Part shown: piece after piece, positions 7,120-29,387 of the stretch | Position numbering within the stretch: position 1 is the first letter of the stretch | Layout of the letters: each line of letters begins with the position of its first letter | From: Aquila chrysaetos chrysaetos | Lineage: Eukaryota; Chordata; Aves; Accipitriformes; Accipitridae | Direction of reading: 5' to 3' | Length of the DNA stretch: 64,000 bases | Assembly: GCF_900496995.4 (NCBI RefSeq) | Contig: NW_024470385.1 | Span: 62,001 to 126,000 of the forward strand | The notes under the pieces: model-generated | Told to the model about the DNA's origin: nothing | The model's input: only the letters and a program-made list of their open reading frames with translations | Databases searched by the model: none | Program-made: the position numbers and the translations under genes

Positions 7120-8260
7120 AATGACACCCGACCTCCGGGGAACAGCTCCGGGGCCTGGGGCTGTTGGGTCCCGGGAAGCTGCAAAGGCGGGAGAAATAAC
7201 TGCCCTCGGCCTGCACCGGGAGAACGCCGGGGGACACGGTGCGGGGGGCTGGCGTGGGTACCAGGCTGGGCCCCGGTGCCAGCGACCGGCGGCGGCCGCA
7301 GCCCCGCCGTGCAGCGCCGGCAGCACCCGGGGCGCCGGGAGTGCGGGCCGGCCCCGGGCTGCGGGTCGGGACCAGGCGCTGCACCGGGCCGGGCCCGCCC
7401 GGTGGCCGGGGCGGCGGGGGCTCCGGCCCGGGGGGGGCTCCGGCCCGGGGGGGGGGGGGGGGCTGCCGAGGGGCTGCTGGGGGCCCGCCCCGGGCGGCGG
7501 CCCCGCTCCAGCAGAAGGGGTCGGGTAGCTCTTCCCGGCGCGATCTCCGGGGAGAGCTGAAGCGCCCGGCCCACCACGGGGCGGTTTTGCCCGGGGGCTC
7601 CGCGGGGGCCCCCCCCGCTCCGCCCCGCCCCACGCCCCGGCCCCGCCGCGGCCCCACCCGCCGGGGCCGCCCCCTGCGCTGCGGCGGGCGCGTCTCCGCT
7701 GGGGGAGGGCAGGCGGCGGAGCCGTCTCTCCGCGCACCCCTCCATCCCTCCGCGCATCCTTCTGCCCCTCCTTGCATGCGTCCATCTCTCCGCGCATCCC
7801 TCCTTGCGTCCCTCCGTCCGTCCGCGCCTCCCTCCTTGCAACCCTGCATCCCCCCGCGCATCCCTCTTTGCAACCCTGCATCCCTCCGCGCATCCCTGCA
7901 TCCCTCCGCGCATCCCTGCATCCCTCCGCAGATCCCTCTGTCCCTCCGCGCATCCCTCCATCCTCCCGCGCACCCCTCCGCCCGCCCCAGCACCGGCAGG
8001 CCGCTCCTGCGCGGGTATGGCGGGGCGGCCGCGCTTCCTCTGCGGCGTGGTGGAAGGTAGGTCCCTCCGGGGCCGCGGCTGGGGCCGGTGCCCCGCCCGG
8101 GCATTGCAGGGGCTGGCCCGGTCCACCCGGAGCGAACAGGGGCCGGGAAGGGCCGCCGGGACCCGAGCCGCGCCCGGGACCCCGGGTACTGGGGAGACAG
8201 AGAGGCGGGCCCCTGCACAGCACCCAACTTCTGCCCACGGGTACGGGACCAGCACCCCCC
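7120..8260. promoter_or_regulatory. CpG-island promoter of the OGA-like gene
   Basis: Dense CpG and GC-box sequence ending just after coding exon 1 of the OGA-like gene (ATG 8017). It includes a 16-G run (7447-7462) and the minisatellite immediately upstream of the start codon. Transcription start sites cannot be placed from sequence alone. Confidence 0.7.
7734..7985. repeat. CATCCCTCCGCG-type minisatellite in the OGA-like 5' leader
   Basis: Tandem units built on CCCTCCGCGCATCCCTGCAT-like sequence with variants (CCTCCTTGC, CCTCTTTGCAACC), repeated through about 250 bp and ending some 30 bp before the ATG at 8017. It lies in the presumed 5' UTR or proximal promoter. It keeps frames open on both strands, which explains several long spurious ORFs here. 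Confidence 0.75.
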
Positions 8261-29200: not shown

Positions 29201-29387
29201 CAGCGCTGGGTTCCCAGTGGTACAGGCCTGACCTCTCGCCTCCCTTCCAGGGTCACGGGGAGTGTTTTGCCAGGTCGGTGCCACTGACCAGCAGCAGCTG
29301 AGCTTCTACAGCAAGCTGGGCTTCGTTGACCTGCCAGTGGCCTGGGGCAGCTCTCCTGGCGCTCGGCTCCTGGGACGTCTCCTCTGA
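8017..29387 (+). CDS. O-GlcNAcase-like protein (GH84 OGA paralogue), complete, 16 exons
   Basis: Expected to remove O-GlcNAc from Ser/Thr of nuclear and cytosolic proteins. Exons: 8017-8056, 11645-11696, 18745-18842, 19359-19489, 20435-20606, 20969-21067, 21409-21693, 21997-22125, 22659-24148, 24221-24395, 25730-25815, 26060-26164, 27899-27990, 28428-28620, 28702-28873, 29251-29387. All phases agree; total 3456 nt, 1151 residues (human OGA 916). The GH84 domain (about 6-290) starts [15 protein letters not shown] and has the catalytic pair in FALLFDDID (D121/D122), the WDN and AND motifs (225-232) and NPNCELQAN. Exon 9 holds a tandem-repeat linker (523-780), then stalk helices ([16 protein letters not shown]), then a GNAT-like C-terminus ending YSKLGF...LLGRLL. 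The ATG is in strong Kozak context with no in-frame ATG seen just upstream. Intron 2 uses a GC donor. No signal peptide or membrane segment. Family assignment is secure; activity is inferred. Confidence 0.93.
8057..11644 (+). other. OGA-like intron 1
   Basis: 3.6-kb intron from GAAG|GTAGGT to TTTTATAG|GT. GC-rich at its left end, AT-rich from about 9.6 kb, with short ACTATTTATTT repeats at 9600-9650. No coding exon or recognisable transposon found. Confidence 0.8.
8329..8348. repeat. 20-C homopolymer in OGA-like intron 1
   Basis: Uninterrupted run of 20 cytosines about 270 bp after the exon 1 donor. The complementary strand is G-quadruplex-capable, and the run length is prone to sequencing error. 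Confidence 0.85.
12842..13077 (+). mobile_element. Internal CR1 ORF2 fragment, inverted near-identical copy of part of the 15.2-17.2 kb CR1
   Basis: 236 bp matching the reverse complement of 15798-16033 with only a few mismatches seen by eye. It encodes [18 protein letters not shown] and shares two private changes with that copy: DDTK changed to DHTK, and the same internal deletion after LMKFSP. It has no CR1 3' end, so it did not arise by ordinary 5'-truncated insertion. Confidence 0.8.
13345..13665. repeat. Degenerate minisatellite, unit about 25 bp
   Basis: Imperfect units around GTGCACTGGTGATGGCACGG (plus CAGT), with TGGTCACAGTGTGGGCAAT variants, repeated about ten times in OGA-like intron 2. 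It produces meaningless open frames on both strands. Confidence 0.7.
15175..17167 (-). mobile_element. CR1 LINE, 5'-truncated, relatively young, minus strand
   Basis: About 2 kb in OGA-like intron 2. The 3' end is at about 15175 (tail of ATTCTATG-type octamers, then CCATTCTAGG on the minus strand). ORF2 pieces read 5' to 3' on the minus strand: [49 protein letters not shown], then a 209-residue open stretch (15942-15313) with [20 protein letters not shown] and LIFSLEKRR-type C-terminal CR1 motifs. The RT catalytic box is damaged: FADHTK in place of FADDTK, and a deletion follows shortly after. Several frameshifts. Non-autonomous now. Confidence 0.92.
18960..19080. repeat. Short degenerate repeat in OGA-like intron 3
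   Basis: Units resembling CAAGGAGMCYCCCCAGACCC recur about four times. Followed at 19262-19322 by three copies of CTCCATCCCTTGTCTCC. Confidence 0.5.
22659..24148 (+). CDS. OGA-like exon 9, repeat-bearing linker exon
   Basis: 1490-nt exon with a strong polypyrimidine acceptor (CTTTCTGCCAG|GA) in the phase required by exon 8, and donor GCGGG|GTAAGG. It encodes residues 336-832: a low-complexity Ser/Gly/Pro stretch, the two tandem arrays, then the conserved stalk start. In human OGA the corresponding linker is acidic, Glu/Asp-rich and non-repetitive (established knowledge). Long open frames on the minus strand across this exon are by-products of the repeats. Confidence 0.88.
23219..23680 (+). 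repeat. 42-bp coding minisatellite, 11 units (14-residue repeat)
   Basis: Eleven consecutive in-frame units of [18 protein letters not shown] sequence (D/G, A/T and S/L variants; the last unit, [14 protein letters not shown], is divergent). Residues 523-676 of the OGA-like protein. Unit length is exactly 42 bp throughout, so units can be gained or lost without a frameshift. Confidence 0.9.
23681..23992 (+). repeat. 39-bp coding minisatellite, 8 units (13-residue repeat)
   Basis: Eight in-frame units of [17 protein letters not shown] sequence, residues 677-780, directly after the 42-bp array. The next residues, [18 protein letters not shown], are the conserved start of the OGA stalk (human PVTLEDLQLLADLFYLPY) and resemble the first half of a repeat unit. 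Confidence 0.88.
24712..24768 (+). CDS. Candidate 57-nt in-frame cassette exon of the OGA-like gene
   Basis: Between exons 10 and 11 lies an open 57-nt segment with a good acceptor (CCTCATTTGCAG) and a strong donor (GGCT|GTAAGT), phase 1 on both sides. Inclusion would add 19 residues ([19 protein letters not shown] in part) between WL and GCQSI. Skipping it gives [10 protein letters not shown], which matches human OGA WLGCRSHSSA exactly, so the skipped form is the reference here. Could be chance. Confidence 0.35.
24769..25729 (+). other. Distal part of OGA-like intron 10
   Basis: About 1 kb between the candidate cassette exon and exon 11. No further coding exon or repeat recognised. Confidence 0.6.
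26165..27898 (+). other. OGA-like intron 12
   Basis: 1.7-kb intron. Its centre (about 26990-27450) is distinctly more AT-rich than the gene and lacks repeats or open frames; it could be a conserved regulatory element. Nothing else recognised. Confidence 0.6.

What the first reader, a model, noticed from the sequence alone, without database searches (positions are those of the whole stretch)
8017..29387. A second, apparently intact O-GlcNAcase gene between DOK1 and LOXL3
A complete 16-exon gene with consistent phases and a preserved GH84 active site ([15 protein letters not shown]) encodes a clear OGA paralogue. O-GlcNAc cycling is usually described with one OGA per vertebrate genome. The human DOK1-LOXL3 interval has no such gene that I know of, so this looks like a lineage-retained (mammal-lost) or otherwise divergent paralogue. 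It diverges from human OGA far more than the LOXL3 and HTRA2 neighbours diverge from theirs, suggesting a changed role.
Basis: partly seen in the sequence, partly recalled or inferred. Interest (0 to 1): 0.78.

Follow-up and report, generated by a model that had tools for sequence, protein, structure and literature searches.

The report
A second, intact O-GlcNAcase gene
This animal (probably a bird) carries, besides its ordinary O-GlcNAcase gene, a second old copy that looks whole and still has the enzyme's active site, although enzyme papers describe vertebrates as having only one.

Summary
A 16-exon gene (window 8017-29387, + strand; here "OGAL") encodes a 1151-residue O-GlcNAcase without stop or frame break. 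The same genome has an ordinary OGA on contig C11, so this is a true second gene. All 15 comparable exons keep the same phase, 10 of 15 the same length, and both genes share an unusual GC splice donor in intron 2. The catalytic residues checked, including the D174/D175 pair (human numbering), are kept; residues at the cleft entrance changed. OGAL branches before the human-bird OGA split (AU p=0.023 against a recent copy). OGA lies with nucleophosmin-, FGF-, beta-TrCP- and lysyl-oxidase-family genes on C11, OGAL beside LOXL3: most likely partners from the early vertebrate genome duplications. A 2008 synteny paper already lists "Mgea2 (chicken)" and a teleost Mgea2 at this locus (PMC2446394); two enzyme papers (2015, 2025) still state a single OGA gene. 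Two coding minisatellites (42 bp x 11.5, 39 bp x 8.5) fill the disordered linker; I did not search the literature for them. Expression and activity are untested. A known kind of gene, under-noticed.

The parts
7000..8499 (.). CpG-rich stretch over exon 1, likely promoter
   Evidence: CpG observed/expected 0.62-1.13 in 250-bp steps from 7000 to 8249 and 0.43 in 8250-8499, against 0.06-0.33 in the six neighbouring steps and 0.34 in the gene body
8017..8056 (+). OGAL exon 1 ([16 protein letters not shown])
11645..11696 (+). OGAL exon 2 (FYGRPW motif); GC donor shared with OGA
18745..18842 (+). OGAL exon 3 (K98 equivalent)
19359..19489 (+). OGAL exon 4
20435..20606 (+). OGAL exon 5 (D174/D175 equivalents, FALLFDDID)
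20969..21067 (+). OGAL exon 6
21409..21693 (+). OGAL exon 7 (W278, N280, D285, N313 equivalents)
21997..22125 (+). OGAL exon 8
22659..24148 (+). OGAL exon 9, 1490 nt: linker with coding minisatellites, then start of the stalk
23188..23671 (+). in-frame minisatellite, 42 bp x 11.5 ([13 protein letters not shown][DG])
23670..24000 (+). in-frame minisatellite, 39 bp x 8.5 ([17 protein letters not shown])
24221..24395 (+). OGAL exon 10 (stalk)
25730..25815 (+). OGAL exon 11 (stalk)
26060..26164 (+). OGAL exon 12
27899..27990 (+). OGAL exon 13 (pseudo-acetyltransferase domain)
28428..28620 (+). OGAL exon 14 (pseudo-acetyltransferase domain)
28702..28873 (+). OGAL exon 15
29251..29387 (+). OGAL exon 16 and stop codon
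29804..29809 (+). AATAAA, candidate poly(A) signal 417 bases after the stop
48262..50035 (+). LOXL3 lysyl-oxidase exons (neighbour used for synteny)
   Evidence: (C93:110262-112035)

Best explanation
OGAL is a second, protein-coding O-GlcNAcase: the surviving partner (ohnologue) of OGA from the early vertebrate genome duplications, kept in this genome and absent from the matching human interval. Shown by sequence: an intact 16-exon gene, the OGA domain order (GH84 barrel, linker, stalk, pseudo-acetyltransferase domain) and the catalytic residue set. Inferred: it removes O-GlcNAc from nuclear or cytosolic proteins by the same substrate-assisted mechanism (D174/D175-type pair), as a stalk-linked dimer. 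Because the sugar pocket is unchanged while the cleft entrance and linker are not, it most likely differs from OGA in substrate choice, partners, or place and time of expression rather than in chemistry.
For: Second GH84 locus in the same genome. Intact CDS and splice sites. Same phase in 15 of 15 comparable exons, identical length in 10 of 15, every length difference a multiple of 3, shared GC donor. Of 28 human-numbered positions checked, 20 are unchanged, among them 67, 98, 174, 175, 219, 278, 280, 285, 313. Of 30 columns invariant in 29 bacterial GH84 proteins and both OGAs, 28 are kept (29 of the 80 loci fetched, my choice). Fourfold sites are saturated (27 of 101 third bases identical, 22.5% expected by chance), yet 233 of 476 codon pairs encode the same residue, so selection held the protein for most of its history. 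The tree puts OGAL outside (human OGA, this OGA), support 97/95 and 100/96; a clade of this genome's two copies is rejected at AU p=0.023. On C11, OGA (15.978-16.001 Mb) lies with nucleophosmin-family exons (15.970), FGF exons (15.948), a beta-TrCP domain (15.773) and lysyl-oxidase exons (16.604); C13 has FGF, nucleophosmin and lysyl oxidase (37.86-38.28), C22 beta-TrCP, FGF and nucleophosmin (2.92-3.42), C93 lysyl oxidase with OGAL. PMC2446394 reports the gene in chicken and teleosts.
Against: No transcript, protein or activity evidence was to be had. No orthologue from another vertebrate was available, so present-day selection is not measured; repeat copies favour synonymous change in the 39-bp array (21 of 45, expected 30%, p=0.014, two tests, uncorrected) but not in the 42-bp array (13 of 34, expected 32%, p=0.28). 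Eight of 28 positions checked differ from human (100, 223, 619, 622, 641, 648, 649, 652; at 619 this genome's OGA differs too); D100E and P139A fall in otherwise invariant columns. The AU p is moderate, OGAL is a long branch, and the clade was tested after the tree had been seen. FGF and lysyl-oxidase matches also occur on other contigs. The DOK and HTRA family searches did not complete.
Confidence: 0.78

Rival explanations
1. OGAL is an ohnologue that has lost hydrolysis and acts as a binder of O-GlcNAc proteins or as a partner that dimerises with OGA.
For: Faster evolution (branch 0.57 versus 0.20); entrance changes F223L, M622C, Y641H, S652L, and D100E, P139A; stalk and pseudo-acetyltransferase domain only 42-43% identical to human.
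Against: The catalytic and sugar-contact residues on my (recalled) list are unchanged, whereas pseudo-enzymes usually lose such residues. F223, M622 and S652 also differ in Trichoplax OGA, whose active-site residues are said to be conserved (PMC12494797, passage seen).
Confidence: 0.12
2. A recent pseudogene or silent relic: still intact, no longer expressed.
For: No expression data; minisatellites have expanded in the linker exon; CR1-like insertions lie in intron 2 (recognised by eye).
Against: No stop or frame break in 1151 codons, 15 usable introns, CpG-rich 5' end and a poly(A) signal; the repeat periods 42 and 39 are multiples of 3 and keep the frame.
Confidence: 0.07
3. A duplication within birds or sauropsids, not from the early genome duplications, diverging fast.
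For: OGAL is a long branch; only one OGAL and two OGA sequences were available for the tree.
Against: Tree and AU test; paralogon arrangement; teleost Mgea2 in PMC2446394 Table 1.
Confidence: 0.04

Closest known systems
OGA / MGEA5 (protein O-GlcNAcase; PDB 5m7r, 5un8/5vvo and others)
   Same: Same domain order, same catalytic set, same 16-exon layout (15 exons comparable) and phases, same GC donor in intron 2
   Different: 59% identity in GH84, 42% in stalk, 43% in pseudo-acetyltransferase domain against human; only about 5 residues before RFLC; linker largely coded by minisatellites; cleft-entrance residues changed
'Mgea2' of chicken and teleosts (PMC2446394, 2008)
   Same: Same place (with Aup1, Htra2, Loxl3 in chicken) and same family; very probably the same gene
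   Different: In the passages seen it is a name in the text and in Table 1, without sequence features or function; its additional files were not read
Trichoplax TaOGA53 / TaOGA54 (PMC4424335, PMC12494797)
   Same: Another animal described with two OGA genes
   Different: One Trichoplax copy lacks the C-terminal domain; here both copies are full length. Whether the two duplications are related was not tested
Bacterial GH84 (80 loci)
   Same: Catalytic domain; the 29 used are 33-55% identical to OGA (best segment)
   Different: OGAL groups with vertebrate OGA, not with bacteria

Membership tests
GH84 O-GlcNAcase | GH84 (NAGidase) catalytic domain above the curated cut-off | tested here: met
   PF07555, 254.7 bits against 25
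GH84 O-GlcNAcase | Catalytic aspartate pair and sugar-binding residues (G67, K98, D174, D175, Y219, W278, N280, D285, N313; list recalled; D175 as catalytic acid also in PMC12494797) | tested here: met
   9 of 9 unchanged
GH84 O-GlcNAcase | Hydrolysis of O-GlcNAc | not testable with these tools
   needs an enzyme assay
Animal OGA (multi-domain) | Stalk and C-terminal pseudo-acetyltransferase domain after the barrel | tested here: met
   PDB matches to the OGA stalk chain 5uhk_B (E=1.9e-39) and to the O-GlcNAcase chain 6r45_A, residues 940-1141 (E=6.5e-21); no Pfam family for this part
Animal OGA (multi-domain) | Homodimer through the stalk | not testable with these tools
   inferred from homology only
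2R ohnologue of OGA | Duplication older than the mammal-bird split | tested here: met
   tree, AU p=0.023; one OGAL and two OGA sequences only
2R ohnologue of OGA | Both copies sit in paralogous regions of the Lbx/Tlx group | tested here: met
   lysyl-oxidase, FGF, nucleophosmin and beta-TrCP family places on C11, C13, C22; lysyl oxidase with OGAL on C93; agrees with PMC2446394. Lbx and Tlx themselves were not sought
2R ohnologue of OGA | Orthologues in fish and other vertebrates grouping with OGAL | not tested
   no vertebrate sequences on hand; stated in PMC2446394 Table 1

The most novel reading that the evidence does not exclude
This lineage runs O-GlcNAc removal with two active, full-length hydrolases that parted in the early vertebrate genome duplications, some 500 million years ago. 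The second has an unaltered sugar pocket but a changed cleft entrance and a repeat-filled linker, so it serves its own set of proteins. The 'one transferase, one hydrolase' rule would then be a simplification seen in mammals.
Probability: 0.6. Interest if true: 0.68.

Novelty: new member of a known kind. Interest (0 to 1): 0.5.

Why it matters
Two enzyme papers treat vertebrates or metazoa as having a single OGA gene (PMC12494797, PMC4424335; passages seen). A second full-length hydrolase with an intact pocket would be a natural experiment on how OGA picks its protein substrates: same chemistry, different entrance and linker. It would also bear on bird and fish models in which OGA is inhibited or knocked out: inhibitors that fit the conserved pocket should hit both (inference), while a knock-out hits one. 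I found the gene listed only in a synteny paper, so this looks like an overlooked gene rather than a new principle.

Tried and rejected
Rejected: 'this is simply OGA' (one search shows the other locus); retrogene (introns at OGA positions); assembly chimera (the DOK-type and lysyl-oxidase neighbours lie on the same contig); a copy arisen within birds.

Led nowhere: literature searches on 'O-GlcNAcase-like', 'OGA2', 'ogab', 'ohnolog' and the like (listings seen, in part capped: 25 of 3,329, 15 of 499, 20 of 29, 2 of 2, 15 of 159 papers) showed no functional paper on the second vertebrate gene. PMC2680843 concerns duplicated ogt, not oga (12 of 19 passages shown). The 42-bp array gave no significant sign of coding constraint. 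The single-outgroup relative-rate test exceeded chi-square 3.84 for 4 of 15 bacterial outgroups, though all 15 leaned towards more change in OGAL; on their consensus the count was 13 against 3. Those 15 are from the 18 closest loci; L035, L039 and L040 were left out by me as near-copies. Numbers printed for lost invariant residues are one too high (checked: D100, P139).

Full report
What is there. The window lies in a 1.23-Gb genome of 144 contigs (contig C93, 261,802 bp). Genome size, CR1-like elements (by eye) and gene order suggest a bird; I could not name the species. I built a model of 16 exons, 8017 to 29387, + strand. It gives 3456 nt and 1151 residues with no stop. Fourteen of 15 introns are GT-AG. 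Intron 2 begins with GC (TG|GCAAGT); the GT donor three bases on would break the frame (my reading), and the ordinary OGA of this genome has AG|GCAAGT at the same place. About 27.5 stops are expected in as many random codons of this composition.

It is not the only OGA. A genome-wide search with the GH84 family gave five exon matches at two places, C11 near 15.99 Mb on the minus strand and the window (10 of 10 candidates scored, first look loose). I modelled the C11 gene over 23 kb. Fifteen of its 16 exons could be read; exon 11 falls in a run of N. Its GH84 domain is 98% identical to human OGA (273 of 279), so it is the ordinary OGA. OGAL against human is 59% (164 of 279) in GH84, 42% (64 of 153) in the stalk and 43% (90 of 208) in the pseudo-acetyltransferase domain. 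Of 15 comparable exons 10 have the same length and all 15 the same phase. That rules out a retrocopy. The sequence called human is that of PDB chain 5m7r as printed; the table says only 'Protein O-GlcNAcase', its species is recalled.

Active site. In human numbering G67, K98, D174, D175, Y219, W278, N280, D285 and N313 are kept; of 28 positions checked 20 are unchanged (the list is recalled, D175 as catalytic acid also in PMC12494797). The eight that differ from human are D100E, F223L, G619S (S also in this genome's OGA), M622C, Y641H, K648R, S649N and S652L. PMC12494797 (passages, outline and part 1 of 4 of its Results seen) names F223, G619, M622 and S652 as positions that also differ in Trichoplax OGA and calls the entry path non-conserved. 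Against 29 bacterial GH84 proteins (of 80 loci fetched) and the two OGAs, 28 of 30 invariant columns are kept (lost: D100E, P139A); against 15 close bacteria, 59 of 64.

Selection. Synonymous sites are saturated (27 of 101 fourfold third bases identical; 22.5% expected by chance), yet 233 of 476 codons in ten equal-length exons still agree in meaning, so the protein was held by selection for most of its history. The catalytic-domain tree (32 rows) gives OGAL a branch of 0.57 against 0.20 for the OGA stem. A paralogue control, the lysyl-oxidase pieces of LOXL3 against the C11 copy, is 74% identical (150 of 203), so OGAL diverged more than that pair, with the caution that domains differ in constraint. 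Single-outgroup relative-rate tests reach chi-square 3.84 in only 4 of 15 cases.

The linker. Exon 9 is 1490 nt against 611 in OGA. Two abutting in-frame minisatellites, 42 bp x 11.5 and 39 bp x 8.5, account for most of the difference: without them 677 nt remain. They code for Pro/Ser/Thr-rich 14- and 13-residue repeats. Copies of the 39-bp array differ more by synonymous changes than expected (21 of 45, p=0.014, uncorrected); those of the 42-bp array do not (13 of 34, p=0.28).

Origin. Human OGA and this genome's OGA are sisters (100/96) and OGAL joins them outside (97/95). Forcing OGAL with this genome's OGA costs 20.6 log units, AU p=0.023 (tested after the tree was seen). On C11 the OGA gene lies about 7 kb from nucleophosmin-family exons, 29 kb from FGF exons (FGF8-like by eye), about 0.2 Mb from a beta-TrCP domain and 0.6 Mb from lysyl-oxidase exons. 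OGAL lies beside lysyl-oxidase exons on C93. On C13 an FGF and a nucleophosmin place are 8 kb apart (37.86-37.87 Mb), with lysyl oxidase at 38.28 Mb; on C22 beta-TrCP, FGF and nucleophosmin lie at 2.92, 3.32 and 3.42 Mb. Names such as LOXL4, BTRC, FGF8 or NPM3 are mine, by position; the calls give families. Further lysyl-oxidase exons on C5 and C37, FGF matches on many contigs and one more nucleophosmin place on C13 (36.45 Mb) lie outside this scheme. The arrangement fits the Lbx/Tlx quartet of PMC2446394, which says that in chicken Aup1, Htra2, Loxl3 and 'a further Mgea gene' lie together, and lists 'Mgea2 (chicken)' and teleost Mgea2 (passages and section 14 seen). By its figure legend MGEA5 occurs in human only at the LBX1 locus. 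The date of the duplications, some 500 million years, is from the abstract of PMC4504502 as listed.

Literature. PMC12494797 (2025) says vertebrates make OGA isoforms from a single gene; PMC4424335 (2015) says metazoa other than Trichoplax possess a single oga gene (passages seen). Eight searches (listings, several capped) showed no paper on the function of the second vertebrate gene; only open-licence PMC texts were searched, so this is no proof of absence.

Most likely working. OGAL most likely is a working O-GlcNAc hydrolase with OGA's mechanism and its own substrate range, partners or expression. Shown: intact gene, domain order, catalytic residues, age older than the mammal-bird split. 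Inferred: expression, activity, dimer form, specialisation.

Noticed in passing
window 7728-7981: GC-rich minisatellite (20/32-bp CATCCCTCC-type units) just upstream of OGAL exon 1, inside the CpG-rich stretch; promoter length may vary between individuals.
   Followed up: no
window 12529-17195: Fragments of CR1-like retrotransposon reading frames, on both strands, in OGAL intron 2; recognised by eye from ORF translations.
   Followed up: no
window 2523-4373 (-) and 8017 onward (+): A DOK-type gene (-) and OGAL (+) stand head to head a few kb apart, both in very GC-rich DNA; in human, DOK1 and LOXL3 are listed as neighbours without OGAL (PMC2446394).
   Followed up: partly
G000:C13:37858197-37866462: A nucleophosmin-family and an FGF-family place 8 kb apart on C13, as near OGA on C11 and on C22: three surviving FGF-nucleophosmin pairs of the quartet. 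None was listed on C93.
   Followed up: partly
L030-L047: Verrucomicrobiota and some other bacteria (Marinimicrobia, Acidobacteriota, Planctomycetota, Alphaproteobacteria) have GH84 domains 46-55% identical to vertebrate OGA, against 36-38% for four Bacteroidaceae/Bacteroides loci of the same list (L057, L058, L061, L068); an old transfer between animals and bacteria is possible.
   Followed up: no
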